Source: Mayamaea pseudoterrestris
Taxonomy: Eukaryota > Bacillariophyta > Bacillariophyceae > Sellaphorales > Sellaphoraceae
Length of the DNA stretch: 64,000 bases
Direction of reading: 5' to 3'
Assembly (NCBI GenBank): GCA_027923505.1
Contig: BROI01000030.1
Coordinates: 1-64,000, forward strand
Part shown: positions 877 to 53,413 of the stretch, piece by piece
Layout: each line of letters opens with the position of its first letter
How positions within the stretch are numbered: position 1 is the stretch's first letter
The notes under the pieces: generated by a model
What the model was told of the DNA's origin: nothing
The model's input: the letters and a program-made list of their open reading frames with translations, nothing else
Database searches by the model: none
Translations under genes and position numbers: made by a program

Positions 877-1056
877 GTAGTGGTATGATTCCATAATTTG
901 GGGTGTTGGCCACACCCATCTTGTAGACCATTCCATGCTGTAGGCCTCCAGGCAGTCCGTTTTGCACCATTTCAGCCCATCCTCATGTCAATGGCACACC
1001 CTGGACATGTTTTGCCTGACTCATTGGGTTGTTGGGTGGCCAGGGCATGGGGCATT
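877..1056 (+). repeat. Hybrid satellite A monomer (A2 left half, A1 right half)
   Basis: This 180-bp monomer begins with the A2 markers (tcttgtagaccattcc) and ends with the A1 markers (ttgcaccatttcagccc, ttgcctgactc, ggtggccaggg). It follows an A1 monomer and is followed by an A2 monomer, so the strict alternation is interrupted. This is what an unequal exchange between out-of-register A1 and A2 monomers would leave. Confidence 0.85.
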
Positions 1057-3345: not shown

Positions 3346-3390
3346 GATTCCATATGGGCCCATGGGAGGATGATCACGGGGGCAGTGGAC
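3346..3390 (+). other. Short non-satellite stretch inside satellite A
   Basis: Between gtatgattccat and the next ccataatttgg there are about 40-45 bases that do not match either monomer. The stretch includes the palindrome atgggcccat and the text ggaggatgatcacgggggc. It is flanked on both sides by a repeat of gattcca/gaccata, so the monomer start is partly duplicated. Origin unknown; filler DNA at a repaired break is one possibility. Confidence 0.6.
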
Positions 3391-5664: not shown

Positions 5665-6013
5665 TTGTAGTGGTATGATTCCATAATTTGGGGTGTTGGC
5701 CACACCCATTTTGCAGATGGTGTAGGCCTCCAGGCAGTCCGTTTTGCACCATTTCAGCCCATCCTCATGTCAATGGCACACCCTGGACATGTTTTGCATG
5801 ACTCATTGGGTTGTTGGGTGGCCAGGGCATGGGGCATTGTAGTGGTATGATTCCATAATTTGGGGTGTTGGCCACACCCATTTTGCAGATGGTGTAGGCC
5901 TCCAGGCAGTCCGTTTTGCACCATTCAGGCCAACCTCCTGGTCAATGGCCCACCCTGGACATGTTTTGCCTGACTCATTGGGTTGTTGGGGGGCCAGGGC
6001 ATGGGGCATTGTA
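5665..6013 (+). repeat. Two A1-type monomers in a row
   Basis: Two consecutive monomers carry the A1 marker ttttgcagatggtg. The first has an A2-like ttgcatgactc followed by an A1-like ggtggccaggg end, so it is itself a recombinant. The second carries private changes (aggccaacctcctggtcaatggccc). A further A1-A1 pair with a 35-40 bp loss follows at about 6190-6535. These are local breaks in the dimer pattern. Confidence 0.7.
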
Positions 6014-9000
6014 GTGATATGATTCCATAATTTGGGGTGTTGGCCACACCCATCTTGTAGACCATTCCATGCTGTAGGCCTCCAGGCAGTCCGTTTTGTA
6101 CCATGTCAGACCATCCTCATGTCAATGGCACACCCTGGACATGTTTTGCATGACTCATTGGGTTGTTGGGTGATCAGGGGACGGGGCATTGTAGTGGTAT
6201 GATTCCATAATTTGGGGTGTTGGCCACACCCATTTTGCAGATGGTGTAGGCCTCCAGGCAGTCCGTTTTGCACCATTTCAGCCCATCCTCATGTCAATGG
6301 CACACCCTGGACATGTTTTGCATGACTCATTGGGTTGTTGGGTGGCCAGGGCATGGGGCATTGTAGTGGTATGATTCCACAATTATTCACCCATTTTGCA
6401 GATGGTGTAGGCCTCCAGGCAGTCCGTTTTGCACCATTTCAGCCCATCCTCATGTCAATGGCACACCCTGGACATGTTTTGCATGACTCATTGGGTTGTT
6501 GGGTGGCCAGGGCATGGGGCATTGTAGTGGTATGATTCCACAATTTGGGGTGTTGGCCACACCCATCTTGTAGACCATTCCATGCTGTAGGCCTCCAGGC
6601 AGTCCTTTTTGTACCATGTCAGACCATCCTCATGTCAATGGCACACCCTGGACATGTTTTGCATGACTCATTGGGTTGTTGGGTGATCAAGGGACGGGGC
6701 ATTGTAGTGGTATGATTCCATAATTTGGGGTGTTGGCCACACCCATTTTGCAGATGGTGTAGGCCTCCAGACAGTCCGTTTTGCACCATTTCAGCCCATC
6801 CTCATGTCAATGGCACACCCTGGACATGTTTTGCCTGACTCATTGGGTTGTTGTGTACCATGTCAGACCATCCTCATGTCAATGGCACACCCTGGACATG
6901 TTTTGCATGACTCATTGGGTTGTTGGGTGATCAGGGGATGGGGCATTGTAGTGGTATGATTCCATAATTTGGGGTGTTCGCCACACCCATTTTGCAGATG
7001 GTGTAGGCCTCCAGGCAGTCCGTTTTGCACCATTTCAGCCCATCCTCATGTCAATGGCACACCCTGCACATGTTTTGCCTGACTCATTGGGTTGTTGGGT
7101 GGCCAGGGCATGGGGCATTGTAGTGGTATGATTCCATAATTTGGGGGCCACACCCATCTTGGCCACTCCATAGGCCTCCAGGCGTTTTGTACCATGTCAG
7201 ACCATCCTCATGTCAATGGCACCCACTGGACATGTTTTGCATGACTCATTGGGTTGTTGGGTGACCAGGGGACGGGGCATTGTAGTGGTATGATTCCATA
7301 ATTTGGGGTGTTGGCCACACCCATTTTGCAGATGCTGTAGGCCTCCAGGCAGTCCGTTTTGCACCATTTCAGCCCATCCTCATGTCAATGGCACACCCTG
7401 GACATGTTTTGCCTGACTCATTGGGTTGTTTGGTGGCCAGGGCATGGGGCATTGTAGTGGTATGATTCCATAATTTGGGGTGTTGGCCACACCCATCTTG
7501 TAGACCATTCCATGCTGTAGGCCTCCAGGCAGTCCGTTTTGTACCATGTCAGACCATCCTCATGTCAATGGCACACCCTGGACATGTTTTGCATGACTCA
7601 TTGGGTTGTTGGGTGACCAGGGGATGGGGCATTGTAGTGGTATGATTCCATAATTTGGGGTGTTGGCCACACCCATCTTGTAGACCATTCCATGCTGTAG
7701 GCCTCCAGGCAGTCCGTTTTGTACCATGTCAGACCATCCTCTTGTCAATGGCACACCCTGGACATGTTTTGCATGACTCATTGGGTTGTTGGGTGATCAG
7801 GGGACGGGGCATTGTAGTTGTATGATTCCATAATTTGGGGTGTTGGCCACACCCATTTTGCAGATGGTGTAGGCCTCCAGGCAGTCCGTTTTGTACCATT
7901 TCAGCCCATCCTCATGTCAATGGCACACCCTGGACATGTTTTGCCTGACTCATTGGGTTGTTGGGTGGCCAGGGCATGGGGCATTGTAGTGGTATGATTC
8001 CATAATTTGGGGTGTTGGCCACACCCATCTTGTAGACCATTCCATGCTGTAGGCCTCCAGGCAGTCCGTTCTGTACCATGTCAGACCATCCTCATGTCAA
8101 TGGCACACCCTGGACATGTTTTGCATGACTCATTGGGTTGTTGGGTGATCAGGGGACGGGGCATTGTAGTGGTATGATTCCATAATTTGGGGTGTTGGCC
8201 ACACCCATTTTGCAGATGGTGTAGGCCTCCAGGCAGTCCGTTTTTGCACCATTTCAGCCCATCCTCATGTCAATGGCACACCCTGGACATGTTTTGCCTG
8301 ACTCATTGGGTTGTTGGGTGGCCAGGGCATGGGGCATTGTAGTGGTATGATTCCATAATTTGGGGTGTTGGCCACACCCATCTTGTAGACCATTCCATGC
8401 TGTAGGCCTCCAGGCAGTCCGTTTTGTACCATGTCAGACCATCCTCATGTCAATGGCACACCCTGGACATGTTTTGCATGACTCATTGGGTTGTTGGGTG
8501 ATCAGGGGACGGGGCATTGTAGTGGTATGATTCCATAATTTGGGGTGTTGGCCACACCCATTTTGCAGATGGTGTAGGCCTCCAGGCAGTCCGTTTTGCA
8601 CCATTTCAGCCCATCCTCATGTCAATGGCACACCCTGGACATGTTTTGCCGGACTCATTGGGTTGTTGGGTGGCCAGGGCATGGGGCATTGTAGTGGTAT
8701 GATTCCATAATTTGGGGTGTTGGCCACACCCATCTTGTAGACCATTCCACGCTGTAGGCCTCCAGGCAGTCCGTTTTGTACCATGTCAGACCATCCTCAT
8801 GTCAATGGCACACCCTGGACATGTTTTGCATGACTCATTGGGTTGTTGGGTGATCAGGGGACGGGGCATTGTAGTGGTATGATTCCATAATTTGGGGTGT
8901 TGGCCACACCCATTTTGCAGATGGTGTAGGCCTCCAGGCAGTCCGTTTTGTACCATGTCAGACCATCCTCATGTCAATGGCACACCCTGGACATGTTTTG

Positions 9001-9493
9001 CATGACTCATTGGGTTGTTGGGTGATCAGCCAGGGCATGAGGGGTATGATTCATTGTAGGGGTTTTTGGGTGTTGGCCACACCCTTTTTGCAGATGGTGT
9101 AGGCCTCCAGGCAGTCCGTTTTGCACCATTTCAGTCCATCCTCATGTCAATGGCACACCCTGGACATGTTTGGCCTGACTCATTGGGTTGTTGGGTGGCC
9201 AGGGCATGGGGCATTGTAGTGGTATGATTCCATAATTTGGGGTGTAGGCCACACCCATCTTGTAGACCATTCCATGCTGTAGGCCTCCAGGCAGTCCGTT
9301 TTGTACCATGTCAGACCATCCTCATGTCAATGGCACACCCTGGACATGTTTTGCATGACTCATTGGGTTGTTGGGTGATCAGGGGACGGGGCATTGTAGT
9401 GGTATGATTCCATAATTTGGGGTGTTGGCCACACCCATTTTGCAGATGGTGTAGGCCTCCAGGCAGTCCGTTTTGCACCATTTCAGCCCATCC

Positions 9494-9508
9494 GCATGTC
9501 AATGGCAC
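9494..9508 (+). repeat. Target-site duplication, left copy
   Basis: The sequence gcatgtcaatggcac ends the left satellite flank and is repeated exactly at 16849-16863, on the other side of the LINE. The first base (g) differs from the satellite consensus (t) in both copies, which supports a true duplication over chance satellite identity. One further base (a) could extend it to 16 bp. Confidence 0.93.
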
Positions 9509-9824
9509 AATAATAATAACTCACGGATTTAGTAGTTAGTTTACCTACACTACTAGCCTTGCGGCTTTAACGCCGCTCCCGTCATCAGTGTGGAAGACCG
9601 GTGAATCGGACCCCGAAGGGCTACCCGAAAGTGGGAGACGGCAAAAAGGGTCATGGTTGCAGCAAGAGTATATCAGACGTAGAACGAACGGAACAGAACG
9701 CAGATCAATTTGGCGTCGCAGATTGATTGCCATACCGCATTCAGAGAAACAGACTTGGGTCGTCATTCACCAAGATGGTACTTGAAGAAACCTGACAAGA
9801 GGAACATATAGTGGGTGGAGAAAC
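9509..9824 (-). other. LINE 3' untranslated region with TAA/TTA tail and hairpin
   Basis: About 315 bp lie between the end of the ORF2 tail frame and the satellite junction. On the element strand it ends in gttattattatt, a short trinucleotide tail instead of poly(A), as in I-type LINEs. A 5-bp perfect hairpin (GCGGC, loop TTTAAC, GCCGC) sits at 9561-9576, about 50 bp from the end; structures in this position can be recognised by the element's reverse transcriptase. No coding potential of its own is seen. Confidence 0.75.
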
Positions 9825-10190
9825 CTACATAGAGGTCAATCCAGGGGTGGTTGTTGTTGTTGTTGTGGTCGGTTGGAAGAGTCGGCGCATCAGGTCTTGC
9901 TGCCGTAGGTGTACTCGTTCCGCCGGTGTTTGTTGTTGAAGAAGAAGGCGTTCCGTCTGGACTTGGTACAGCCAAGCTTCAATTTGTGATGGTAATCGTG
10001 AACGAATGCGTGTGAGCCCGGGCTGGAAAAGGCGCCGTAGGCGTGCTGAGGAGTTCGTACCCCATGGTTGGAGGAATTCATGATCAACTTGTCGTTGCAG
10101 TTCTTGAACGCGCAAGCCGTTGTTCCTCCTGTGGAGCGCATCATTGCGATGCTCCCAGAGATCCCAGGAGATATCAAATAGTTTGCGGTA
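9825..10190 (-). pseudogene. ORF2 C-terminal tail in a shifted frame
   Basis: From about 10190 downward the convincing protein text lies in a different frame from the long ORF2 frame. It reads KLFDISWDLWEHRNDALH and then a Gln/Arg/Leu-rich tail (VQELQRQVDHEF, RLPSQIEAWLYQVQ, LRQQDLMRRLFQP) that ends in eight threonines. A W-D-x-W-x-H-R-N stretch is typical of the C-terminus of LINE ORF2 proteins of this kind. So this copy has a one-base frameshift near 10190, and the last 100 residues of the long open frame are out of frame. The poly-Thr run is encoded by a short (GTT)n tract at 9848-9868. Confidence 0.75.
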
Positions 10191-13100
10191 AGTTGGGAAA
10201 GCCAGCGGAGCCCATTATGATACGGTTTGGAGGACCGTGAGCGATAGTGAATTTCTTGTAGGTCGGACCATCCTTTCGAGAATCGGCCTTCAAATGCCGC
10301 CAGCCAACCAAGCTGTAGTTGACTATGAAGCAGCTGATGAAGGGATATGTCATCTATAGTCGGCGGGTCAGAATGTGTGCGCCAGGCAGCGAGAGAGCTA
10401 ATGATGGCCACCCGTAAATTGGAGGCAGTGCCCACTGTCATGAGCCATGTGTCGAGATCATCCAGACGTTCGTCCCAAAGTGCCTGGGTACTGGGGCAGG
10501 TGTAGAGATGTTCCACCGTCTCCTCAATTGTTACAGGAGGGGTCTGCGTCAAACAGGTGGGACAAGTGTCTTCCGTGGAATGGTGGCGCAGTTTCAAGCG
10601 ACGCCTGACGGCAACAAACTTGGAGATAAGCTTGGATTGATGCAGCCGGCGCGATGGAGACAACAATTGCATAGCTTTGCCCGTCGCTTCCCAGTCAACA
10701 TGATTTGGAGTCGAGGAACCAAATTTATCCTTTGTTTGCCAGTAATCCAGAAGGGGTTTGCCATTAATTTGGAGTCGAAGAGCCGCGTCAAGGCCAGAAC
10801 AAATCTTGTCATTCGCAATGAGCACGGGCGGTAGCTCACCAAACAGAAATTGTGGCGACACCGTGGTGGGTGAGTCGGCATAAAGCACCCTGTGTGCCTT
10901 GGCGGCGGCATCCATTTCATCGTTGAGCAGTGCCCACCGGTCGAGCGGGCCAATGAATTGATTGCCATCCAGGCCTTTCTCCCGCTGATGGCCCAGGACA
11001 TGGTGAGTGAGCCACACAATAGGAGTATCGTGCATTAGACGTCGGCACGCTGAGATGAGATCAAATTGCTTCTGGCCAAGAGGAGTGGGTTTGTCACAGG
11101 AGGAAGCTTGTTTCAGTGCGGACAGGCCATCGCACGCAATGGTAATGGAGCCGGATGTAACACCATAGTGCCGACAGAGCAAATGCACCAAAAGAATAGC
11201 CTGGTACAATCCAACCAGCTCACTGCGATAAGCACTTTGGACCTGCGCTGGTCCGGGGCATACACACTGCGCGGTAATAGCGCCCGCGGCTGAGGAGCCC
11301 TGAAGCGTGACAGCTGCCGCCCCAGTTCGGCGATGAGGATCAAAGGAGCCGTCACTCACAGCAATACAAGTGCCATCTCGTAGGGCGGAAACAATCAGTT
11401 GACAGTTATGCTCAGTGAGATCAGTGTGATCCAGAACCCAGTGTGTCCGGGGGAAAAGCATGGCCCGCAGCGACTCCAGCAAGGGTTCGGTGGCCACGGC
11501 CTGAGCAAGAGATGATTCACCATAGCTTTCCAAGCTGACAGAGCAATGCGTAACCCGACGGACAGTGGCACGCTGAAGGTTGAGTGAGGGACCTGCCCAT
11601 TCGTGACGGCCACTGTACACTGCCACGCGACGCCTGCGGCCAGTACCACTGTAAGCAAACTTGTACCACTTGTCGTCAAGACATTCAAATACCTCATCCG
11701 TCCGCGGACTGTAGAAGAACCGAGTAGTAGGTTCATCCGCATGCCAGAGGCCAAGCGAACGGTGCAGGCGTCGTTGTGGCGAGCAGAACACTTGAAGAAG
11801 GGCCAATCGCCAGGTATCCCAGCAGCGTTCAGAGAGTTCTCCCTGGAGAGGCCAATCATACACTGAGTTGCAAGTGCTGTCGCGAGCGCCATACCATGCA
11901 CATTCTGTGATATAGTTGCCATCGCCAGAGGTGATATCAGAGAGAGAAACCACCTGGAGGAACATGCGACAGCGATTGAGGATGGACAACGTCGAGGAAG
12001 GAAGAGAAGACAATGCAAATTGCTCCATAAGAAGGAGATCGCCAGCGCGTCGACAGCTGAAATCAGGGAGTGAATCGTGCACTGATATTCCATGTTGATG
12101 GCAACTTTGCCATGTAAATGACACCCAACTCGTGGTAACAACCGGGGACAGCCGATCATAGTTGTGCGAGAAAAGAAAGCCATTCAGCCCTAGTTCCAAT
12201 TTAAGTAGCTCCATACTGACCTGAAGCAGCTGAGATGTATTCCTCGTTGGGAGTTCCGCGGCAAACGCTATCACTTCCAAGTGTGCGTATAGCTGGGCGA
12301 CAAACAGGTCTCGAAATCCCAACCCTTGCACTGCAAGTGGCGCGCATCGCAAAACTGTCGGAGCATCACTGCCGACCCCAGAAAGTTGAAGCGCTGCCGT
12401 TAAAGATGGGCTCTGGATATATGCAGTCTGTTTGGGTGTGAGGCACGTCGCCACCAGAGGGTAGGACAGAGCTTTATCAATGGTCGTGGAGTAGGCCACG
12501 GCAGCCAGATGGCGAGGAAGGCGGCTGTGACGTAGAGACCGCGCCCAATCCACTGATTTCTTGCGCAGAACCAATGCTTGAGTGTCATTGCAGCCATCAG
12601 GGGAAAGATAAATGCCCAATGTCCGTTCCGCATGATTGACCGGACAGCGTTTGATGGTTTGAACATTGCCATGCATGTCTTTGACAGAGAGCGTTGCTGG
12701 ACACTCGCGTTCGTGTTTGTATGACCAGGAGCCATCGGAATGCCATTTGTAATCAATAAGATACCAGAAAGTCTTCTCAGGTGCAATGGCGCCGCCGGTC
12801 GCGCGTAGTCCACCTTCCCAATGGTCCAGGGAGCGTTGCATGTCGGATGCTACCAAAGCGTAATCTGTCAGATGTGAGCCGCAAATACCAAGATCAGTAT
12901 CATCGACAAAGGAATAGCCAACAAAGGAGACGGTGGAGCCAGACAAAGTGCAGCGATACGACATGCCGAGCCCTTCAGCACGAAGCATGTTTAACAAGGG
13001 CGTGGAGACAAGTGCCCAAATCTGTGGCGCCGCCCCGTTGCCTTGCCCAATAGTTGAAACCGGCACAGCAAACAGTTCCAAGCTTTCAATGCCTCCGAAG

Positions 13101-14326
13101 TATGTAGTCGAGTCGCCGAAAACGGTGCGAATATAGTGCTCCAGCTTCTGGATTGTGGAGAAGATACATACAACAGCCGGTTTGGACACTCCCACCCGCT
13201 GCAGGTAGAGCGACGCCACAGAGTGGACAATGCGATCATAGCAAGCACGTGCATCATTGGAGCAGAGGGCCATGACCCGGCGTAGCTGGCGCGAGATGTC
13301 AAATGACAATTGTTTCTCCAGCCCCAAATAGTTGGCCCGATGACCCTTGCGAGAACCCCCTTGCTCTTTGGCCAAGAGGCCATGTGCTTCGGCTTCTGAC
13401 ATCATACATTTTCCAAGGTTCTTAAAGCTATGATTTGCAATGCAATCAAACAGGCAGATGGCGCGCAGTTTGTCCACCTGGAAGTTTCCCGCCTTTTTCT
13501 CAATCAAAACATCAATTGCTTTGTGCCAAGAGCTCGGAGGGCATCCTGTGAGCATTGGGATGTACTCCAGTTGCCGATGCATCTCCGCAAGTGCTGGATC
13601 CTGCATGCTCGCCATCATATGGCCAAAATGGCGTCCAGGGAAAGCAGCAGTACGCTCGGATTGTCGCCGCCATCGGTACTGAAAGGTGGGCAAGTCTGGA
13701 ATGTGATCGACGTAGGAGTGGCGAAGGGACTCCGCGCGTGGCAGCTGACGAAGGAGTTTGACAGCATATTCGGAAACTCCAGACAGGTCTTCCTCTGTGA
13801 CCGAGCCATCCAGTATGCGGTCACAGAAGGGAGTGACGCCAAGAGTGCCGACGCGCTCAAATAATGGAGGATGAGAGGAGGATGAGATGCGGCAGGCTTC
13901 GAACCAGCCCTTCGTTCTTGCATCCAGACAATGATGGCTAGAGACATGTCGCCAGTTCACATTCACTTCAGACAAACCAATGACATCTATACGATTTTTA
14001 TTAACTATACTGCGGACCAGACAGTCTTTGCACGAGCCGCATGCTCTGACTCCGGAGCAAACAGGTACCACCTGTAGACCACCAATATTAACAAACAACA
14101 ACCGAACATGATCGCCTACTGGTTCAAGCAGCTCATGTCCGTGAAGACCTTTACTCTCCGCGCGAGAAAAGGCCGGACTGGAAAAGGCATTTTGGGAAGA
14201 TCGTCCACCGCTTCCCATGCCTTGTCGACTCACAGGTCTGGGCCACCCCTCGTGCTTTGAGAGGCAGCCATTGACGCTGATGTAGGTTGTTGTTGGGAGG
14301 AGCTCGATCGGAGTCGTGATCCCCAT
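9890..14326 (-). CDS. LINE ORF2: endonuclease remnant, reverse transcriptase, RNase H, CCHC knuckle
   Basis: A 1478-codon open frame. Residues about 75-150 look like the start of an AP-type endonuclease: LLFVNIGG with N80, then DVIGLSEVNVNW with E120. The rest of that domain, including any SDH-type motif, is absent; the text passes from GWFEACRISSS straight into the linker before the RT, so roughly 150 or more residues seem to be deleted in frame. The reverse transcriptase spans about 270-520, with the motif A region SNDARACYDRI (357-367) and motif C FVDDTD (473-478). RNase H spans about 985-1145 (SDGSF D992, SELVGL E1036, ACDGL D1066, NDEMDAAAK D1139). A CX2CX14HX3C knuckle lies at C1255, C1258, H1273, C1277. 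The frame after about residue 1378 is off the family track. It overlaps the ORF1 C-terminal frame by 97 bp. It copies element RNA at the target site. Without a nuclease this copy could move only with help. Confidence 0.93.
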   Translation of the reverse strand: MGITTPIELLPTTTYISVNGCLSKHEGWPRPVSRQGMGSGGRSSQNAFSSPAFSRAESKGLHGHELLEPVGDHVRLLFVNIGGLQVVPVCSGVRACGSCKDCLVRSIVNKNRIDVIGLSEVNVNWRHVSSHHCLDARTKGWFEACRISSSSHPPLFERVGTLGVTPFCDRILDGSVTEEDLSGVSEYAVKLLRQLPRAESLRHSYVDHIPDLPTFQYRWRRQSERTAAFPGRHFGHMMASMQDPALAEMHRQLEYIPMLTGCPPSSWHKAIDVLIEKKAGNFQVDKLRAICLFDCIANHSFKNLGKCMMSEAEAHGLLAKEQGGSRKGHRANYLGLEKQLSFDISRQLRRVMALCSNDARACYDRIVHSVASLYLQRVGVSKPAVVCIFSTIQKLEHYIRTVFGDSTTYFGGIESLELFAVPVSTIGQGNGAAPQIWALVSTPLLNMLRAEGLGMSYRCTLSGSTVSFVGYSFVDDTDLGICGSHLTDYALVASDMQRSLDHWEGGLRATGGAIAPEKTFWYLIDYKWHSDGSWSYKHERECPATLSVKDMHGNVQTIKRCPVNHAERTLGIYLSPDGCNDTQALVLRKKSVDWARSLRHSRLPRHLAAVAYSTTIDKALSYPLVATCLTPKQTAYIQSPSLTAALQLSGVGSDAPTVLRCAPLAVQGLGFRDLFVAQLYAHLEVIAFAAELPTRNTSQLLQVSMELLKLELGLNGFLFSHNYDRLSPVVTTSWVSFTWQSCHQHGISVHDSLPDFSCRRAGDLLLMEQFALSSLPSSTLSILNRCRMFLQVVSLSDITSGDGNYITECAWYGARDSTCNSVYDWPLQGELSERCWDTWRLALLQVFCSPQRRLHRSLGLWHADEPTTRFFYSPRTDEVFECLDDKWYKFAYSGTGRRRRVAVYSGRHEWAGPSLNLQRATVRRVTHCSVSLESYGESSLAQAVATEPLLESLRAMLFPRTHWVLDHTDLTEHNCQLIVSALRDGTCIAVSDGSFDPHRRTGAAAVTLQGSSAAGAITAQCVCPGPAQVQSAYRSELVGLYQAILLVHLLCRHYGVTSGSITIACDGLSALKQASSCDKPTPLGQKQFDLISACRRLMHDTPIVWLTHHVLGHQREKGLDGNQFIGPLDRWALLNDEMDAAAKAHRVLYADSPTTVSPQFLFGELPPVLIANDKICSGLDAALRLQINGKPLLDYWQTKDKFGSSTPNHVDWEATGKAMQLLSPSRRLHQSKLISKFVAVRRRLKLRHHSTEDTCPTCLTQTPPVTIEETVEHLYTCPSTQALWDERLDDLDTWLMTVGTASNLRVAIISSLAAWRTHSDPPTIDDISLHQLLHSQLQLGWLAAFEGRFSKGWSDLQEIHYRSRSSKPYHNGLRWLSQLTANYLISPGISGSIAMMRSTGGTTACAFKNCNDKLIMNSSNHGVRTPQHAYGAFSSPGSHAFVHDYHHKLKLGCTKSRRNAFFFNNKHRRNEYTYGSKT

Positions 14327-15072
14327 CCTCCTGGTGGTGGCATTGGTGGGTATGGAGCTGGAGGTCCCACAATGCGCACAGTAGTAGTAGTCGTTGTTGT
14401 TGTTGGCTCGGGTGAAGACGGGTTGCCGTGCCCGTCTGTAGGCATGTCGTCAATCGCCATCATTTCTGAAGGCTCGCTTGCTGCCATTTCATCCTCGAAA
14501 GCGCGCTGCTCGCGCATGGTTTGATGCATCCGTTCCACAGGATCCTCAAACAAATCCACGTCCTCGTCGTATCCGTCCAGTAGTGGTAGATCGGCAGGAT
14601 AATCATCTTCCATCAGAGTTGGAGACTCCGAGTCGTCGCTCATCTCGTCGTCATCCGGCGGACGCTTCAGTAGTTGTACCTTAGACTGCTGAAGGGGTTT
14701 TGGTGAACGAGGACGGCGCGTAGAGTCGTCCATTGCTGGAGGCGCCGGTTCATCATCGGCTCCAAAAAGGCGGCGGCGCCCATCAGTGTCTGACGTAGGT
14801 GGTGCTTCATCCACTGACTGTTCAGTTGCAGGCGTGCCGCCTTCCAGAGAGGCAAACTTTGCGACTAAAGTTGCCAGCGTCGCCTGAGTCTCCATCAATT
14901 GAAGTTGAAGCCCATCTACCAAAGCAGCCTTCTTTTCAGCCGCCGCGAGACGAAGCTTTGTTGCGACTAGCCAGGCATTCCACCTGACGTGTGTGCGCGA
15001 CCTGAAGAGATGTTGCGCACGATGCTGCGTGTGATTGCGGGCACCTACGGGCCTGCTGCCCAGCGGGACAAG
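14230..15072 (-). CDS. LINE ORF1 C-terminal part: coiled coil and acidic low-complexity tail
   Basis: This frame is open from just after a TGA at 15073-15075 down to a stop at 14230. The part from 14922 gives 230 residues. It begins with basic text and a predicted coiled coil (LQLQLMETQATLATLVAKF). An acidic, Pro/Ser/Asp-rich stretch (DDDEMSDDSESP), a poly-Thr run and a Pro-rich end (PPAPYPPMPPPGGWGS) follow. There is no ATG at the head: the apparent start at 14922 is a TTG, so this is best read as the downstream part of ORF1, cut off by the stop and a frameshift. Coiled coil plus disordered tail is common in LINE ORF1 proteins, which bind element RNA and self-associate. The end overlaps the start of ORF2 by 97 bp in another frame. 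The first part (14965-15072) lies in satellite-B-like DNA. Confidence 0.7.
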   Translation of the reverse strand, partial: LVPLGSRPVGARNHTQHRAQHLFRSRTHVRWNAWLVATKLRLAAAEKKAALVDGLQLQLMETQATLATLVAKFASLEGGTPATEQSVDEAPPTSDTDGRRRLFGADDEPAPPAMDDSTRRPRSPKPLQQSKVQLLKRPPDDDEMSDDSESPTLMEDDYPADLPLLDGYDEDVDLFEDPVERMHQTMREQRAFEDEMAASEPSEMMAIDDMPTDGHGNPSSPEPTTTTTTTTVRIVGPPAPYPPMPPPGGWGSRLRSSSSQQQPTSASMAASQSTRGGPDL

Positions 15073-15227
15073 TCATGGCCTGACGCATGCTGCAGAGACC
15101 TGGCGCCAAGTTGGCTCAGCCCGAATATCAATCGCCGTCCCCTGAGACACTCGCCAGGCGGATACCACTGTAGGGCAGTGTCTTAAATAATGATCATAGT
15201 GGCAATCGTGTCTGGTCGACATTTGGG
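14965..15227 (+). repeat. Satellite-B-like segment inside the LINE (about 1.5 units)
   Basis: The plus strand aligns with satellite B end to end. At 14965 gactagccaggcattccacct matches the satellite's gacactagccaggcataccatct. At 15041 gcacctacgggcctgctg matches the satellite variant gcacctacagggcctgctg. At 15132-15158 tcgccgtcccctgagacact is followed by cgccaggc, and at 15185 aataatgat and at 15220 catttggg also match. The two gccaggc points (14970 and 15153) are 183 bp apart, close to the 169-bp monomer, so this is more than one unit in tandem. The translated minus strand also agrees: the LINE frame reads AWRVSQGTAI where satellite B reads AWLVSQGTAM. Identity is patchy by eye, perhaps 65-75 percent. 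It covers the ORF1 breakpoint region. Confidence 0.85.
15105..15115 (+). promoter_or_regulatory. Dyad GCCAA-G-TTGGC in the LINE, counterpart of the satellite B dyad
   Basis: A perfect 11-bp dyad sits at the place that aligns with satellite B's GACAA-G-TTGTC core. One base in the left arm (A to C) and its partner in the right arm (T to G) both differ, so the symmetry is kept. Possible dimeric protein site or hairpin; no function is shown. Confidence 0.5.
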
Positions 15228-16399
15228 AAAGCTGGCGCAATGAGGCGGGGCGCAAAATGTTTGATGAGCGCATATAGATGCGGAATGACAGTGCGAACCC
15301 GCGACTGGTTGCTACTATGGTAGACACAGCGGACTCGTCCCAATGCCGTGACATTTACTTGTTCAAACAAGTAGAGAAGGCCCGTGTGGACCGGATCGTG
15401 CGCCGTAATGTCCATCATGATGCTACGGATATTGAACATGGTAAAGCCTGGAATAAGTGGACCGTCCAGATCCTCGAAAAAGCTGAGAATGTCGGTGCGC
15501 TGGTGGCGGTCAACTGTTGCCTTGTGCCATTTGAGGAGCGCGAGGCGCGTCTCTTGGGAGTCTTCCTCCGCTGTAAGTGTAGGAGCAAACGTTGCGCGAA
15601 TGCCGGCCGGGTATCGGCGGCCTGGAATGACTCCTGCAGGGAACATAGCAGTCAGTCGGTCGCTGGCCGTCCGAGCATCCTTTTCGTTCACCTCGAGGTG
15701 CCATGCTCGAATGGGATCGTATGTAACTTTCTCAAGTTTGTCTGCAGCATCCAACACAAGCGCACCATCCGTTTTGGACATATAGCCCAGATTCGCTGGA
15801 AAGACACTGCAAGGGAGTCCAATACAGGCCTCGATTTCTCGCCGGTAGCGATCGTTGTCGACATCAGAGTCGAAGGGATGATTCTGAAAGTAGCCAAGCT
15901 TGATCTTTGACTCCGACTGAAGGCAACTCGCGCTAATCTTGTAGTCCGTGTTCCGCTTGTCAAAGAAGTACTTGTGAAGCATTGTAGCGGCTGTCTTTGG
16001 GTCGCGAAACGGCTCGCTTTCGCTGCAGTCATATCCGACGTAAATCCTCGCCCAAATCCAAACCGCATACTTCGGGTTGCTCGGCTCGTAGAGATACGTC
16101 GTATGGAGAAGCGGCCAGTCGGCAAACTTGAACGAGTGGAGGTCCATGGCTTTAATGTGTTCCTGGTCGCGTGTTTCACATGAATGCCATGGATAAATGA
16201 GGAGGTCTCGTCCTTGGGGATATGTTTTTAGACACCAGTCGTCGAGCTTGGAAAAGATGGCATGGATATTCTTGCGCGCCATCGCTGCACTTGTATCGTA
16301 GTCACCATCAAAGAGCCCTTTGGTCCCGATAAGGAAGCGATGTTGTACATGGCGCGGCTTCTGTTCAGCTTCTGAAAGTCTTTCCCCTGTCATTGGCAT
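15194..16399 (-). CDS. LINE ORF1 core protein (401 aa)
   Basis: A clean 401-codon frame with an ATG at 16399. I recognise no named domain, but the text resembles the conserved ORF1-type proteins that accompany diatom LINEs, with landmarks KLGYFQNHPFD (167-177), RAWHLEVNEKDA (231-242) and FPAGVIPGRRYPAGIR (253-268). It is probably the RNA-binding or structural partner of ORF2; that role is inferred from position. The start codon overlaps the stop of the upstream 115-codon frame within ATGCCAATGA, which would allow reinitiation. The last 11 codons and the stop run into the satellite-B-like segment, where the neighbouring frame (15073-15354) takes over the better match, so a frameshift near 15210 is likely. 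The core itself (15228-16388) has no satellite similarity that I can see. Confidence 0.75.
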   Translation of the reverse strand: MPMTGERLSEAEQKPRHVQHRFLIGTKGLFDGDYDTSAAMARKNIHAIFSKLDDWCLKTYPQGRDLLIYPWHSCETRDQEHIKAMDLHSFKFADWPLLHTTYLYEPSNPKYAVWIWARIYVGYDCSESEPFRDPKTAATMLHKYFFDKRNTDYKISASCLQSESKIKLGYFQNHPFDSDVDNDRYRREIEACIGLPCSVFPANLGYMSKTDGALVLDAADKLEKVTYDPIRAWHLEVNEKDARTASDRLTAMFPAGVIPGRRYPAGIRATFAPTLTAEEDSQETRLALLKWHKATVDRHQRTDILSFFEDLDGPLIPGFTMFNIRSIMMDITAHDPVHTGLLYLFEQVNVTALGRVRCVYHSSNQSRVRTVIPHLYALIKHFAPRLIAPAFPNVDQTRLPL

Positions 16400-16626
16400 C
16401 CCCTGGACACTTCATTTCGGCGGCGGCAATTGTGGTGTTGATTCCATTTGGGGTCGTTCCCCTTCTGCTCCTCCGGGAGTCGTTTGAATGTTACCATCTG
16501 CAGCCCATCCTCGGCGACAATGGCACACCCTGGACATGTTTTGCCTGACTCAATGGGTTGTTGGGTGGCCATGGGCATGAAAAGTTGATTGTAGTGCTTG
16601 AAATTGTGGGTTGGAACCCATCTATG
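16389..16626 (+). repeat. Satellite-A-like segment inside the LINE (about 1.4 units)
   Basis: The plus strand follows satellite A: tgtcattggcatcccctggac (16389 on) matches tgtcaatggcacaccctggac; aattgtggtgttgattcc (16428 on) matches cattgtagtggtatgattcc; ctccgggagtcgttt is followed by cagcccatcctc. The run from 16519 to 16552 is identical to A1, and with one mismatch the match continues to 16571. Then attgtagtg (16589) and cccatct open a second unit. Paired landmarks are 127 bp (cctggac) and 160 bp (attgt-gtg) apart, so the first unit is shortened. It lies inside coding text of the element, so it is part of the LINE and not flank. Confidence 0.85.
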
Positions 16627-16737
16627 GGGCATGTGCCTACAGGGCGTCTGGCTGTCTGTCGTCGCAAAATCGTCGCGAGTCGTTCTCTGCGGGAACTGTT
16701 TCAATTGAAAAATTTCTTCAATATAATGATCTTTCAA
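16390..16737 (-). CDS. LINE 5' open frame, 115 codons, with possible CCHC/CCHH zinc site
   Basis: This frame is open from about 16791 to a stop at 16390 and has no ATG near its head; the first usable start at 16737 is a TTG. It reads like real protein (HYIEEIFQLKQFPQRTTRDDF, in part) and carries TCPGCAIVAEDG followed about 25 residues later by WNQHHNC, spacing compatible with a zinc site. It may be the N-terminal part of ORF1 or a separate small ORF; 5' truncation of the element could explain the missing ATG. Its last two-thirds overlap satellite-A-like DNA: ATQQPIESGKTCPGCAI corresponds to a frame present in satellite A. It ends in the ATGCCAATGA overlap with the 401-aa frame. Confidence 0.55.
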   Translation of the reverse strand: MKDHYIEEIFQLKQFPQRTTRDDFATTDSQTPCRHMPHRWVPTHNFKHYNQLFMPMATQQPIESGKTCPGCAIVAEDGLQMVTFKRLPEEQKGNDPKWNQHHNCRRRNEVSRGCQ

Positions 16738-16848
16738 GGTATAAGCTGACTTGTTTGGTGCATTAGAATATTGGTTGTTGATGTTAGAGAGGGATTACTA
16801 TGGGGAAATATGGTGACGCATCAACGGCACTCCGTGTCGCAGAATTAT
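16738..16848 (-). other. LINE 5' end
   Basis: About 110 bp lie between the first usable start codon and the satellite junction. The same reading frame stays open back to about 16791 without an ATG. A CCAAT occurs at about 16772, but I cannot support a promoter. The shortness and the open frame favour a 5'-truncated copy. Confidence 0.5.
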
Positions 16849-16863
16849 GCATGTCAATGGCAC
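16849..16863 (+). repeat. Target-site duplication, right copy
   Basis: Exact repeat of gcatgtcaatggcac from 9494-9508. Satellite A resumes here at monomer position 99-113 and continues in register (accctggacatg from 16864). Confidence 0.93.
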
Positions 16864-19196
16864 ACCCTGGACATGTTTTGCCTGACTCATTGGGTTGTTG
16901 GGTGGCCAGGGCATGGGGCATTGTAGTGGTATGATTCCATAATTTGGGGTGTTGGCCACACCCATCTTGTAGACCATTCCATGCTGTAGGCCTCCAGGCA
17001 GTCCGTTTTGTACCATGTCAGACCATCCTCATGTCAATGGCACACCCTGGACATGTTTTGCATGACTCATTGGGTTGTTGGGTGATCAGGGGACGGCATT
17101 AGGTATGATTCCATAATTTGGGGTGTTGGCCACACCCATTTTGCAGATGGTGTAGGCCTCCAGGCAGTCCGTTTTGCACCATTTCAGCCCATCCTCATGT
17201 CAATGGCACACCCTGGACATGTTTTGCCTGACTCAATGGGTTGTTGGGTGGCCAGGGCATGGGGCATTGTAGTGGTATGATTCCATAATTTGGGGTGTTG
17301 GCCACACCCATCTTGTAGACCATTCCATGCTGTAGGCCTCCAGGCAGTCCGTTTTGTACCATGTCAGACCATCCTCATGTCAATGGCACACCCTGGACAT
17401 GTTTCGCATGACTCATTGGGTTGTTGGGTGATCAGGGGACGGGGCATTGTAGTGGTATGATTCCATAATTTGGGGTGTTGGCCACACCCATTTTGCAGAT
17501 GGTGTAGGCCTCCAGGCAGTCCGTTTTGCACCATTTCAGCCCATCCTCATGTCAATGGCACACCCTGGACATGTTTTGCCTGACTCATTGGGTTGTTGGG
17601 TGGCCAGGGCATGGGGCATTGTAGTGGTATGATTCCATAATTTGGGGTGTTGGCCACACCCATCTTGTAGACCATTCCATGCTGTAGGCCTCCAGGCAGT
17701 CCGTTTTGTACCATGTCAGACCATCCTCATGTCAATGGCACACCCTGGACATGTTTTGCATGACTCATTGGGTTGTTGGGTGATCAGGGGACGGGGCATT
17801 GTAGTGGTATGATTCCATAATTTGGGGTGTTGGCCACACCCATTTTGCAGATGGTGTAGGCCTCCAGGCAGTCCGTTTTGCACCATTTCAGCCCATCCTC
17901 ATGTCAATGGCACACCCTGGACATGTTTTGCCTGACTCATTGGGTTGTTGGGTGGCCAGGGCATGGGGCATTGTAGTGGTATGATTCCATAATTTGGGGT
18001 GTTGGCCACACCCATCTTGTAGACCATTCCATGCTGTAGGCCACAAGGCAGTCCGTTTTGTACCATGTCAGCCCATCCTCATGTCAATGGCACACCCTGG
18101 ACATGTTTTGCATGACTCATTGGGTTGTTGGGTGATCAGGGGACGGGGCATTGTAGTGGTATGATTCCATAATTTGGGGTGTTGGCCACACCCATTTTGC
18201 AGATGGTGTAGGCCTCCAGGCAGTCCGTTTTGCACCATTTCAGCCCATCCTCATGTCAATGGCACACCCTGGACATGTTTTGCCTGACTCATTGGGTTGT
18301 TGGGTGGCCAGGGCTTGGGGCATTGTAGTGGTATGATTCCATAATTTGGGGTGTTGGCCACAATCATCTTTTTGACCATTCCATGCTGTAGGCCTCCAGG
18401 CAGTCCGTTTTGCACCATGTCAGACCATCCTTATGTCAATGGCACACCCTGGACATGTTTTGCATGACTCATTGGGTTGTTGGGAGATCAGGGGACGGGG
18501 CATTGTAGTGGTATGATTCCATAATTTGGGGTGTTGGCCACACCCATTTTGCAGATGGTGTAGGCCTCCAGGCAGTCCGTTTTGCACCATTTCAGCCCAT
18601 CCTCATGTCAATGGCACACCCTGGACATGTTTTGCCTGACTCATTGGGTTGTTGGGTGGCCAGGGCATGGGGCATTGTAGTGGTATGATTCCATAATTTG
18701 GGGTGTTGGCCACACCCATCTTGTAGACCATTCCATGCTGTAGGCCTCCAGGCAGTCCGTTTTGTACCATTTCAGCCCATCCTCATGTCAATGGCACACC
18801 CTGGACATGTTTTGCATGACTCATTGGGTTGTTGGGTGATCAGGGGATGGGGCATTGTAGTGGTATGATTCCATAATTTGGGGTGTTGGCCACACCCATC
18901 TTGTAGACCATTCCATGCTGTAGGCCTCCAGGCAGTCCGTTTTGTACCATGTCCGACCATCCTCATGTCAATGGCACACCCTGGACATGTTTTGCATGAC
19001 TCATTGGGTTGTTGGGTGATCAGGGGACGGGACATTGTAGTGGTATGATTCCATAATTTGGGGTGTTGGCCACACCCATTTTGCAGATGGCGTAGGCCTC
19101 CAGTCCGTTTTGCACCATGTCAGCCCATCCTCATGTCAATGGCACACCCTGGACATGTTTTGCCTGACTCATTGGGTTGTTGGGTGGCCAGGGCAT
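16864..19196 (+). repeat. Satellite A array 2
   Basis: About 6.6 copies of the 352-bp dimer continue array 1 in register after the LINE. Small private changes occur (gtcagcccatcc in an A2 monomer near 18070; caatcatctttttgacc near 18360). Two A2-like monomers lie next to each other at about 18680-19040. The last monomer has lost four bases (ctccagtccg) and reads gcagatggcgtagg; it ends abruptly in gggcat at 19196, joined to satellite B. Confidence 0.95.
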
Positions 19197-22100
19197 CACC
19201 AATATCATTGCCGTCCCCTGAGACACTAGCCAGGCATACCATCTTGTTGCGCAGCCTGAATAATGATGTTGGCACCATTCTGGTGTCATTTGGGTGTATA
19301 CATGGCCTGCTGTAGGGGCATTTGAATGTCATGGCATCTGCAGGCTGAGACTGGTGACAAGTCGTCACCAATATCATTGCCATCCCCTGAGACACTAGCC
19401 AGGCATACCATCTTGTAGCGCAGCCTGAATAATGATGTTGGCACCATTCTGGTGTCATTTGGGTGTATACATGGCCTGCTGTAGGGGCATTTGAATGTCA
19501 CGGCATCTGCGGGCTGAGACTGGTGACAAGTTGTCACCAATATCATTGCCGTCCCCTGAGACACTAGCCAGGCATACCATCTTGTAGCGCAGCCTGAATA
19601 ATGATGTTGGCACCATTCTGGTGTCATTTGGGTATACTCATGGCCTGCTGTAGGGGCGTTTGAATGTCACGGCATCTGCAGGCTGAGACTGGTGACAAGT
19701 TGTCACCAATATCATTGCCGTCCCCTGAGACACTAGCCAGGCATACCATCTTGTAGCGCAGCCTGAATAATGATGTTGGCACCATTCTGGTGTCATTTGG
19801 GTGTATACATGGCCTGCTGTAGGGGCGTTTGAATGTCACGGCATCTGCAGGCTGAGACTGGTGACAAGTTGTCACCAATATCATTGCCGTCCCCTGAGAC
19901 ACTAGCCAGGCATACCATCTTGTAGCGCAGCCTGAATAATGATGTTGGCACCATTCTGGTGTCATTTGGGTGTATACATGGCCTGCTGTAGGGGCGTTTG
20001 AATGTCACGGCATCTGCGGGCTGAGACTGGTGACAAGTTGTCACCAATATCATTACCGTCCCCTGAGACACTAGCCAGGCATACCATCTTGTAGCGCAGC
20101 CTGAATAATGATGTTGGCACCATTCTGGTGTTATTTGGGTACATACAGGGCCTGCTGTAGGGGCGTTTGAATGTCACGGCATCTGCAGGCTGAGACTGGT
20201 GACAAGTTGTCACCAATATCATTGCCATCCCCTGAGACACTAGCCAGGCATACCATCTTGTAGCGCAGCCTGAATAATGATGTTGGCACCATTCTGGTGT
20301 CATTTGGGTGTATACATGGCCTGCTGTAGGGGCGTTTGAATGTCACGGCATCCGCGGGCTGAGACTGGTGACAAGTTGTTACCAATATCATTGCTGTCCC
20401 CTGAGACAATAGCTAGGCATACCATCTTGTTGCGCAGTTTGTATAATGATGTTGGCACCATTCTGGTGTCATTTGGGTGTATACATGGCCTGCTGTACGG
20501 TAGGGGCGTTTGAATGTCACGGCATCTGCGGGCTGAGACTGGTGACAAGTTGTCACCAATATCATTGCCATCCCCTGAGACACTAGCCAGGCATACCATC
20601 TTGTAGCGCAGCCTGAATAATGATGTTGGCACCATTCTGGTGTCTTTTGGGCACCTACAGGGCCTGCTGTAGGGGCGTTTGAATGTCACGGCATCTGCAG
20701 GCTGAGACTGGTGACAAGTTGTCACCAATATCATTGCCGTCCCCTGAGACACTAGCCAGGCATACCATCTTGTAGCGCAGCCTGAATAATGATGTTGGCA
20801 CCATTCTGGTGTCATTTGGGTGTATACATGGCCTGCTGTAGGGGCGTTTGAATGTCACGGCATCTGCAGGCTGAGACTGGTGACAAGTTGTCACCAATAT
20901 CATTGCCGTCCCCTGAGACACTAGCCAGGTATACCATCTTGTAGCGCAGCCTGAATAATGATGTTGGCACCATTCTGGTGTCATTTGGGTGTATACATGG
21001 CCTGCTGTAGGGGCGTTTGAATGTCACGGCATCTGCAGGCTGAGACTGGTGACAAGTTGTCACCAATATCATTGCCGTCCCCTGAGACACTAGCCAGGCA
21101 TACCATCTTGTAGCGCAGCCTGAATAATGATGTTGGCACCATTCTGGTGTCATTTGGGTGTATACATGGCCTGCTGTAGGAGCATTTGAATGTCACGGCA
21201 TCTGCAGGCTGAGACTGGTGACAAGTTGTCACCAATATCATTGCCGTCCCCTGAGACACTAGCCAGGCATACCATCTTGTAGCGCAGCCTGAATAATGAT
21301 GTTGGCACCATTCTGGTGTCATTTGGGTGTATACATGGCCTGCTGTAGGGGCGTTTGAATGTCACGGCATCTGCAGGCTGAGACTGGTGACAAGTTGTCA
21401 CCAATATCATTGCCATCCCCTGAGACACTAGCCAGGCATACCATCTTGTTGCGCAGCCTGTATAATTATTTTGGCACCATTCTTGTGTCATTTGGGTGTA
21501 CCATGGCCTGCTGTAGGGGCGTTTGAATGTCACGGCATCTGCGGGCTGAGACTGGTGACAAGTTGTCACCAATATCATTGCCGTCCCCTGAGACACTAGC
21601 CAGGCATACCATCTTGTAGCGCAGCCTGAATAATGATGTTGGCACCATTCTGGTGTCATTTGGGTGTATACATGGCCTGCTGTAGGGGCATTTGAATGTC
21701 ACGGCATCTGCGGGCTGAGACTGGTGACAAGTTGTCACCAATATCATTGCCGTCCCCTGAGACACTAGCCAGGCATACCATCTTGTAGCGCAGCCTGAAT
21801 AATGATGTTGGCACCATTCTGGTGTCATTTGGGTGTATACATGGCCTGCTGTAGGGGCGTTTGAATGTCACGGCATCTGCAGGCTGAGACTGGTGACAAG
21901 TTGTCACCAATATCATTGCCGTCCCCTGAGACACTAGCCAGGCATACCATCTTGTAGCGCAGCCTGAATAATGATGTTGGCACCATTCTGGTGTATTTTG
22001 GGCACCTACATGGCCTGCTGTAGGGGCATTTGAATGTCACGGCATCTGCGGGCTGAGACTGGTGACAAGTTGTCACCAATATCATTGCCGTCCCCTGAGA

Positions 22101-25100
22101 CACTAGCCAGGCATACCATCTTGTAGCGCAGCCTGAATAATGATGTTGGCACCATTCTGGTGTCTTTTGGGCGCATACAGGGCCTGCTGTAGGGGCGTTT
22201 GAATGTCACGGCATCTGCAGGCTGAGACTGGTGACAAGTTGTCACCAATATCATTGCCGTCCCCTGAGACACTAGCCAGGCATACCATCTTGTTGCGCAG
22301 CCTGAATAATGATGTTGGCACCATTCTGGTGTCATTTGGGTGTATACATGGCCTGCTGTAGGGGCGTTTGAATGTCACGGCATCTGCAGGCTGAGACTGG
22401 TGACAAGTTGTCACCAATATCATTGCCGTCCCCTGAGACACTAGCCAGGCATACCATCTTGTAGCGCAGCCTGAATAATGATGTTGGCACCATTCTGGTG
22501 TCATTTGGGTGTATACATGGCCTGCTGTAGGGGCGTTTGAATGTCACGGCATCTGCAGGCTGAGACTGGTGACAAGTTGTCACCAATATCATTGCCGTCC
22601 CCTGAGACACTAGCCAGGCATACCATCTTGTTGCGCAGCCTGAATAATGATGTTGGCACCATTCTGGTGTCATTTGGGTGTATACATGGCCTGCTGTAGG
22701 GGCATTTGAATGTCACGGCATCTGCAGGCTGAGACTGGTGACAAGTTGTCACCAATATCATTGCCGTCCCCTGAGACACTAGCCAGGCATACCATCTTGT
22801 AGCGCAGCCTGAATAATGATGTTGGCACCATTCTGGTGTCATTTGGGTGTATACATGGCCTGCTGTAGGGGCGTTTGAATGTCACGGCATCTGCAGGCTG
22901 AGACTGGTGACAAGTTGTCACCAATATCATTGCCGTCCCCTGAGACACTAGCCAGGCATACCATCTTGTTGCGCAGCCTGAATAATGATGTTGGCACCAT
23001 TCTGGTGTCATTTGGGTGTATACATGGCCTGCTGTAGGGGCGTTTGAATGTCACGGCATCTGCGGGCTGAGACTGGTGACAAGTTGTCACCAATATCATT
23101 GCTGTCCCCTGAGACACTAGCCAGGCATACCATCTTGTAGCGCAGCCTGAATAATGATGTTGGCACCATTCTGGTGTCATTCGGCTGCCTACATGGCCTG
23201 CTGTAGGGGCGTTTGAATGTCACGGCATCTGCAGGCTGAGACTGGTGACAAGTTGTCACCAATATCATTGCCATCCCCTGAGACACTAGCCAGGCATACC
23301 ATCTTGTAGCGCAGCCTGAATAATGATGTTGGCACCATTCTGGTGTCATTTGGGTGTATACATGGCCTGCTGTAGGGGCGTTTGAATGTCACGGCATCTG
23401 CAGGCTGAGACTGGTGACAAGTTGTCACCAATATCATTGCCGTCCCCTGAGACACTAGCCAGGCATACCATCTTGTAGCGCAGCCTGAATAATGATGTTG
23501 GCACCATTCTGGTGTCATTTGGGTGTATACATGGCCTGCTGTAGGGGCGTTTGAATGTCACGGCATCTGCAGGCTGAGACTGGTGACAAGTTGTCACCAA
23601 TATCATTGCCGTCCCCTGAGACACTAGCCAGGCATACCATCTTGTAGCGCAGCCTGAATAATGATGTTGGCACCATTCTGGTGTCATTTGGGTGTATACA
23701 TGGCCTGCTGTAGGGGCGTTTGAATGTCACGGCATATGCTAGACGTCAAGCACAAGGCATACCATCTTGTAGCGCAGATGGCACTCTAGGGTATACATGG
23801 CCTGCTGTAGGGGCGTTTGAATGTCACGGCTGAGGCTGAGACTGGTGACAAGTTGTCACCAATATCATTGCCATCCCCTGAGACACTAGCCAGGCATACC
23901 ATCTTGTAGCGCAGCCTGAATAATGATGTTGGCACCATTCTGGTGTCATTTTGGTGTACTACATGGCCTGCTGTAGGGGCGTTTGAATGTCACGGCATCT
24001 GCAGGCTGAGACTGGTGACAAGTTGTCACCAATATCATTGCCGTCCCCTGAGACACTAGCCAGGCATACCATCTTGTAGCGCAGCCTGAATAATGATGTT
24101 GGCACCATTCTGGTGTCATTTGAGCGCCTACATGGCCTGCTGTAGGGGCGTTTGAATGTCACGGCATCTGCAGGCTGAGACTGGTGACAAGTTGTCACCA
24201 ATATCATTGCCGTCCCCTGAGACACTAGCCAGGCATACCATCTTGTAGCGCAGCCTGAATAATGATGTTGGCACCATTCTGGTGTCATTTGGGTGTATAC
24301 ATGGCCTGCTGTAGGGGCATTTGAATGTCACGGCATCTGCAGGCTGAGACTGGTGACAAGTTGTCACCAATATCATTGCCGTCCCCTGAGACACTAGCCA
24401 GGCATACCATCTTGTAGCGCAGCCTGAATAATGATGTTGGCACCATTCTGGTGTCATTTGGGTGTACCTACATGGCCTGCTGTAGGGGCGTTTGAATGTC
24501 ACGGCATCTGCAGGCTGAGACTGGTGACAAGTTGTCACCAATATCATTGCCGTCCCCTGAGACACTAGCCAGGCATACCATCTTGTAGCGCAGCCTGAAT
24601 AATGATGTTGGCACCATTCTGGTGTCATTTGGGTGTATACAGGGCCTGCTGTAGGGGCGTTTGAATGTCACGGCATCTGCAGGCTGAGACTGGTGACAAG
24701 TTGTCACCAATATCATTGCCGTCCCCTGAGACACTAGCCAGGCATACCATCTTGTAGCGCAGCCTGAATAATGATGTTGGCACCATTCTGGTGTCATTTG
24801 GGTGTATACATGGCCTGCTGTAGGGGCGTTTGAATGTCACGGCATCTGCAGGCTGAGACTGGTGACAAGTTGTCACCAATATCATTGCCGTCCCCTGAGA
24901 CACTAGCCAGGCATACCATCTTGTAGCGCAGCCTGAATAATGATGTTGGCACCATTCTGGTGTCATTTGGGTGTATACATGGCCTGCTGTAGGGGCGTTT
25001 GAATGTCACGGCATCTGCAGGCTGAGACTGGTGACAAGTTGTCACCAATATCATTGCCGTCCCCTGAGACACTAGCCAGGCATACCATCTTGTAGCGCAG

Positions 25101-53410: not shown

Positions 53411-53413
53411 TAG

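What the first reader, a model, noticed from the sequence alone, without database searches (positions are those of the whole stretch)
14965..16626. One LINE carries diverged copies of both surrounding satellites, flanking its ORF1 core
Satellite A resembles 16389-16626 and satellite B resembles 14965-15227 of the LINE, each for more than one repeat unit and in the same orientation as the arrays. The similarity is visible as shared words along the whole monomer, and for B also in protein text (AWRVSQGTAI against AWLVSQGTAM). The two segments sit immediately to either side of the 401-codon ORF1 core. Two satellites both traceable to one LINE family, with a copy re-inserted in one of them, would be an unusual closed loop between a retrotransposon and satellite DNA. 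Direction is open: birth of satellites from the LINE, or capture of satellite DNA by the LINE.
Basis: seen in the sequence. Interest (0 to 1): 0.92.

Follow-up and report, generated by a model that had tools for sequence, protein, structure and literature searches.

The report
LINE element carrying two satellite fragments
A jumping gene sitting inside long satellite-DNA arrays carries old, altered pieces of both satellites within its own body, so mobile element and satellite DNA have shared sequence, although which came first cannot be settled from one copy.

Summary
A LINE (9510-16848, sense on the minus strand, 16-bp target duplication) sits in satellite A. LINE 14966-15227 matches satellite B (74%, E 2e-22). 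LINE 16389-16660 matches satellite A, best over 16493-16579 (92%, E 1e-26). No shuffle reached these scores. Both segments span more than one monomer (1.41 and 1.85 units), in array orientation.

What is new. The B-like piece starts just after the ORF1 stretch shared with a distant relative (L003) and separates it from a downstream ORF in another frame; L003 has one continuous ORF1 without detectable A or B. The A-like piece is mixed: a 62-87-bp A1-type tract at 92-97%, between parts resembling A and B about equally. Its inner edge lies within about 4 bp of the satellite phase where this LINE inserted.

Reading: the LINE lineage captured satellite fragments, with later exchange at the A tract (confidence 0.5). 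Birth of the satellites from the LINE stays possible: the LINE's B copy is longer than B, against the array trend. No other copy of the family could be reached, so direction is open. LTR-retrotransposon, Helitron and L1 precedents make it a new variant of a known kind.

The parts
9510..16848 (-). LINE (non-LTR retrotransposon) inserted in satellite A; 5' end at right, 3' end at left with an (ATT)n-type tail
   Evidence: 16-bp TSD GCATGTCAATGGCACA found exactly twice in the window, at 9494 and 16849; ORF2 28.6% identical to L003 ORF2 over 1054 columns, E 2e-125; tail seen
9494..9509 (.). target-site duplication, 3'-side copy
   Evidence: the common array form CCTCATGTCAATGGCACA occurs 113 times, the variant with G only here and at the right end
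16849..16864 (.). target-site duplication, 5'-side copy
15194..16399 (-). ORF1, 401 codons; residues 256-346 (BLASTP), extended to 382 in a Smith-Waterman alignment, align with ORF1 of relative L003
   Evidence: E 0.003 for a single comparison; 3 of 500 shuffles reach the score
14966..15227 (+). satellite-B-like segment, 1.41 units, about 74%
16389..16492 (+). 5'-leader unit resembling A and B about equally
   Evidence: A score 55, B score 52, 0/1000 shuffles each
16493..16579 (+). A-specific tract, 92% (97% over 16518-16579), A1-subunit type
16580..16660 (+). weaker continuation of the A-like segment
   Evidence: A 6/1000, B 14/1000
14230..14922 (-). second ORF after the B-like segment: heptad-like N-terminus and acidic/proline-rich tail (by eye); probably the C-terminal part of ORF1
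   Evidence: similar layout at the end of ORF1 in L001, by inspection only; pairwise BLASTP weak, E 0.037 over 13 residues
9890..14326 (-). ORF2, 1478 codons, reverse transcriptase; RNase H region by eye and by co-alignment with L003; most of the endonuclease region missing
1..9509 (+). satellite A array (172/180-bp units, 352-bp dimer)
16850..19196 (+). satellite A array
19196..32577 (+). satellite B array (169 bp)
32651..34649 (+). satellite A array
34649..53411 (+). satellite B array (41.6-47.5 kb deletion-rich)
53430..64000 (+). satellite A array

Best explanation
A LINE lineage living among A and B arrays captured fragments of both. The B fragment entered ORF1 between its conserved part and its tail, before this copy landed. 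The 5' leader took up satellite sequence, plausibly when an ancestor sitting at the same satellite site was transcribed from upstream satellite DNA (5' transduction), and part of it was later overwritten by an A1-type tract through exchange with A arrays. This copy then inserted by target-primed reverse transcription into A. Shown: similarity, tandem structure, target-site duplication, ORF1 arrangement. Inferred: capture direction, 5' transduction, conversion, the insertion chemistry.
For: Both segments hold more than one tandem unit in array phase, natural for array fragments. The 92% tract has the A1-subunit words (GCCTGACTC, GGTGGCC..GGGCATG) rather than the A2 ones; an A2-A1 junction fits best, A1-A1 nearly as well (128 vs 125). 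The B piece begins about 9 codons after the end of the alignment with L003 ORF1 (45 codons after the BLASTP match), and the ORF downstream is in another frame; L003 has one uninterrupted ORF1 and L001-L003 show no A/B match better than E 1.1. B at 74% beside an exact 16-bp TSD means the B piece predates this insertion. The A segment edge (phase 3) lies within about 4 bp of the TSD edge (phase -1), about 5% by chance. The variant GACTCAATGGGTT is only in the LINE and at 17230 near it (2 vs 125 of the common form).
Against: The LINE's B copy is longer than B (21 insertion and 7 deletion events; 18 and 4 with two other gap settings) while array copies lean to deletions (95 vs 125 in 98 chunks; 63 vs 356 in 22 chunks of the deletion-rich stretch), as if B were the shortened descendant. 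Unit 16389-16492 resembles A and B equally, not expected of a decayed A fragment. L001-L003 are too distant to show that this family once lacked the segments. The phase coincidence is only about 1 in 20 and was noticed after the fact.
Confidence: 0.5

Rival explanations
1. Satellites A and B were born from the LINE: tandem repeats in its 5' leader and in ORF1 expanded into arrays, and a copy later jumped back into A.
For: B indel polarity; 5' parts resembling both satellites; the arrays share one orientation, matching the LINE's two segments; published precedents for Ogre (PMC7004042) and for LINE untranslated regions (PMC12628747), passages seen.
Against: LINE segments are already tandem; the A tract is of A1 subtype rather than equidistant from A1 and A2; no other LINE sequence is detected in the arrays; the B piece lies between ORF1 parts in different frames.
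Confidence: 0.27
2. Old shared ancestry plus recurrent two-way exchange: gene conversion between LINE copies and surrounding monomers keeps rewriting patches, so there is no single direction.
For: Contrast of the 92-97% tract with its flanks; variant shared only with a monomer about 380 bp away; the block GGGCACCTAC shared by the LINE and 11 places in B, in monomers otherwise no closer to it.
Against: Each shared variant could be recurrent mutation; one LINE copy only.
Confidence: 0.18
3. Chance or low-complexity similarity.
For: None found for the two main segments; only the outer parts 16580-16660 and 16661-16849 are marginal.
Against: 0 of 100 and 0 of 1000 shuffles; E down to 1e-26.
Confidence: 0.01

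Closest known systems
Ogre Ty3/gypsy elements with tandem repeats that became satellites in Lathyrus sativus (PMC7004042; passages seen)
   Same: Retrotransposon carries short tandem copies of satellite repeats, and elements also insert into the expanded arrays of some of the same satellites; the paper names the same two directions
   Different: LTR elements, 3' untranslated region, many copies; here one LINE copy, 5' leader and ORF1, two satellites
Cetacean common satellite built on L1 (table row in PMC8909793; Kapitonov 1998 seen only as a reference)
   Same: LINE and satellite share sequence
   Different: Details of that case were not read here; ours has two satellites and a LINE inserted in one of them
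Mouse L1 5' UTR monomers (PMC9022269, start of abstract in search listing)
   Same: Tandem repeat units upstream of ORF1 in a LINE
   Different: Mouse monomers belong to the promoter; promoter activity here untested, and satellite arrays of the same unit surround the element
Helitrons with internal satellite-like arrays (review PMC12628747, passages)
   Same: Mobile element captures or spreads tandem repeats; different arrays inside one element
   Different: Helitrons, not LINEs

Membership tests
LINE / non-LTR retrotransposon | ORF2 with reverse transcriptase | tested here: met
   28.6% identity to L003 over 1054 columns and 32.2% to L002 over 614; L002 passes the Pfam RVT_1 cut-off, 37.5 vs 29.6 bits. 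The window protein itself gives no Pfam hit.
LINE / non-LTR retrotransposon | Target-site duplication, 3' tail, no LTRs | tested here: met
   16-bp TSD; (ATT)n tail at 9510; LINE against itself shows no terminal repeat, best off-diagonal hit 34 bases at E 0.16, internal
LINE / non-LTR retrotransposon | Complete APE-type endonuclease (of the APE-bearing LINEs) | tested here: not met
   About 424 residues fewer than L003 and 455 fewer than L001 across the region where Pfam places Exo_endo_phos in them, below cut-off; this copy is probably non-autonomous
Satellite born from a LINE | LINE copies without satellite context carry the unit; satellite younger than the family | not testable with these tools
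   No host genome held; no same-family copies found
Satellite captured by a LINE | Related copies lack the segments | tested here: inconclusive
   3 of 3 relatives lack A/B similarity, but they are distant, and L003 and L001 hold only parts of ORF1, L002 none
Mouse-L1-like promoter monomers | 5' repeats drive transcription | not testable with these tools
   Needs expression data

The most novel reading that the evidence does not exclude
A self-sustaining loop: the LINE inserts at a fixed phase of satellite A, takes up satellite sequence at its 5' end when it is transcribed from within the array, and by exchange seeds and rewrites both satellites, so one element and two satellites evolve together.
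Probability: 0.15. Interest if true: 0.8.

Novelty: new variant of a known kind. Interest (0 to 1): 0.52.

Why it matters
How satellites are born and how they relate to the retrotransposons in them is an open question. One LINE holding tandem fragments of both neighbouring satellites, with a clean insertion that orders the events, gives a system in which direction can be decided once other copies of the family are examined.

Tried and rejected
Chance similarity: rejected for the two main segments.

Direct A-B homology: A1 vs B 197/1000, A2 vs B 389/1000, B vs A 80/1000 shuffles, so not shown; the register implied through LINE unit 16389-16492 differs by eye from that of the direct A-B alignment, so the bridge is not proof either.

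Coding origin of B from few stop codons: 5 stops per monomer on the LINE-sense strand against a shuffled mean of 6.6 (275 of 1000 shuffles at or below), so rejected.

B monomers sharing GGGCACCTAC as the source subfamily: 10 of 151 extracted monomers carry it (11 places in B in all); with the motif masked they are no closer to the LINE than the rest (one-sided p 0.96).

Satellite nature of the outermost 5' part 16661-16849: marginal, 9/1000, not claimed.

Other LINE remnants in the arrays: none detected (tblastn of three ORFs at E<=1; blastn at E<=1e-3).

Searches for the family elsewhere: viral contigs and genome contigs one search gave nothing usable; one search gave three contigs L001-L003 filed under bacterial MAGs, used as distant relatives. 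Host organism not identified. Pfam and NCBIfam found no convincing family for the window ORFs; PDB found nothing useful for ORF2. Nine paper searches showed no report of a LINE with fragments of two satellites; they cover only the held open-access library, by title and start of abstract, and searches listed only part of their hits (15 of 82, 10 of 14, 6 of 11).

Full report
SETTING. The window is almost wholly two satellites, A (172/180-bp units in a 352-bp dimer) and B (169 bp), in one orientation: four satellite words tested occur 114 to 144 times on the plus strand and never on the minus strand. One LINE interrupts them, in A. The 16-mer GCATGTCAATGGCACA occurs only twice in the window, at 9494 and 16849, while the ordinary array form CCTCATGTCAATGGCACA occurs 113 times; both flanks thus share a private variant, as a target-site duplication should. 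The LINE is 9510-16848, sense on the minus strand, with a 3' (ATT)n tail at the left and no terminal repeats. Its ORFs are ORF1 16399-15194 (401 codons), a second ORF ending at 14230, and ORF2 14326-9890 (1478 codons).

CHECK OF THE OBSERVATION. blastn of the LINE against the arrays gives hits at E<=1e-3 only in about 14966-15227 (B, 73.9%, E 2e-22) and 16470-16614 (A; 92.0% over 16493-16579, E 1e-26; 96.8% over 16518-16579), plus strand only. Shuffle controls: 0 of 100 and 0 of 1000 reach the main scores. Immediate flanks fall to background (lowest 44 of 1000). Both segments run through more than one unit.

ANATOMY OF THE A-LIKE SEGMENT. It is not uniform. Unit 16389-16492 scores 55 with A and 52 with B, neither reached by 1000 shuffles. 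The tract 16493-16579 is A only and carries A1-subunit words; an A2-A1 junction fits best (128), A1-A1 nearly as well (125), A1-A2 112, A2-A2 107. The continuation to 16660 is weak for both satellites (6 and 14 of 1000). The contrast suggests a recent A1 tract written into an older satellite-related leader. The variant GACTCAATGGGTT occurs only in this tract and at 17230, in a monomer about 380 bp outside the LINE, against 125 copies of the common form; with one shared substitution this is a hint. In satellite phase, the inner edge of the segment (phase 3) lies within about 4 bp of the edge of the LINE's own target duplication (phase -1). This would follow if an ancestor inserted at the same site was transcribed from the satellite upstream. 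By chance it is about 9 of 176 phases, and it was noticed after the fact, so it is a hint only.

ANATOMY OF THE B-LIKE SEGMENT. ORF1 residues 256-346 match the ORF1 of L003 by BLASTP (E 0.003, single comparison); a Smith-Waterman alignment runs on to residue 382, and 3 of 500 shuffles reach its score. The B-like segment begins at residue 391 and supplies the last 11 codons up to the stop. After it comes an acidic ORF with a heptad-like start, in another frame. L001 ends its ORF1 with a similar-looking tail running to the ORF2 start, though pairwise similarity is weak (E 0.037). L003 has one continuous ORF1 of at least 346 codons. None of L001-L003 shows A or B sequence better than E 1.1. The B piece therefore looks like an insertion into ORF1. 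At 74% identity beside an exact TSD and long open ORFs it must predate this copy's landing.

AGAINST CAPTURE. Relative to the B consensus, the LINE's B piece has 21 insertion and 7 deletion events (net +23 bases; 18 and 4 events with two of the four gap settings). Ordinary B chunks of the same size (98 kept of 105; 7 dropped for low score) have 95 and 125, and 22 of 22 chunks of the deletion-rich stretch have 63 and 356. If change is deletion-biased, the LINE copy is nearer the longer ancestor and B the shortened descendant. The deletion-rich stretch may be assembly error, so the ordinary chunks are the fairer yardstick. For A the bias runs the other way with the loosest gap setting (11 insertions, 23 deletions in the LINE); with stricter settings the A alignment shortens and the counts become 7 and 10, 6 and 8, 4 and 0, so nothing is built on A.

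STATE OF THE ELEMENT. Against L003 the ORF2 lacks about 424 residues and against L001 about 455, in the endonuclease region; Pfam sees the endonuclease in L003 and L001 below cut-off, E 0.005 and 0.007. With most of the endonuclease gone and ORF1 split, this copy was probably moved in trans, or lost these parts after landing. RNase H is named from recall of its motifs and the alignment with L003; no library named it.

COMPARISON. Reviews and primary work describe satellites arising from retrotransposon parts, including LINE untranslated regions (PMC12628747, passages), Ogre elements carrying short tandem arrays of nine satellites, some of them also inserting into expanded arrays of the same satellites (PMC7004042, passages), and an L1-based cetacean satellite (PMC8909793 table row). 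Mouse L1 has tandem monomers upstream of ORF1 (PMC9022269, search listing). The present case combines these in a LINE with two satellites, one in the 5' leader and one inside ORF1. It is a new variant of a known kind.

VERDICT. Other copies of the family would decide it; none was reachable.

Noticed in passing
53411-53430: The B-to-A array junction carries an interstitial telomere-type repeat, GTTAGGGTTAGGGTTAG, the only run of two or more TTAGGG units in the window; it suggests a subtelomeric locus with a healed or fused end.
   Followed up: partly
41600-47500: B monomers are deletion-rich (356 deletion vs 63 insertion events in 22 chunks), with some small deletions recurring by eye, between much more uniform arrays: either decayed B or unpolished assembly.
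   Followed up: partly
9890-14326 (-): ORF2 is open for 1478 codons although most of the endonuclease region found in relatives L001 and L003 is missing.
   Followed up: partly
19196 and 34649: Both A-to-B junctions switch at the same base (GGCCAGGGCA/TCACCAATATC), so one junction was probably duplicated.
   Followed up: no
32577-32651: The B-to-A junction holds a diverged monomer mixing A-like and B-like words, by eye.
   Followed up: no
L001, L002, L003: Contigs filed under bacterial MAGs (Pirellulaceae, Nitrospirae) encode eukaryote-type LINE ORF2 proteins and are probably eukaryotic contamination.
   Followed up: partly
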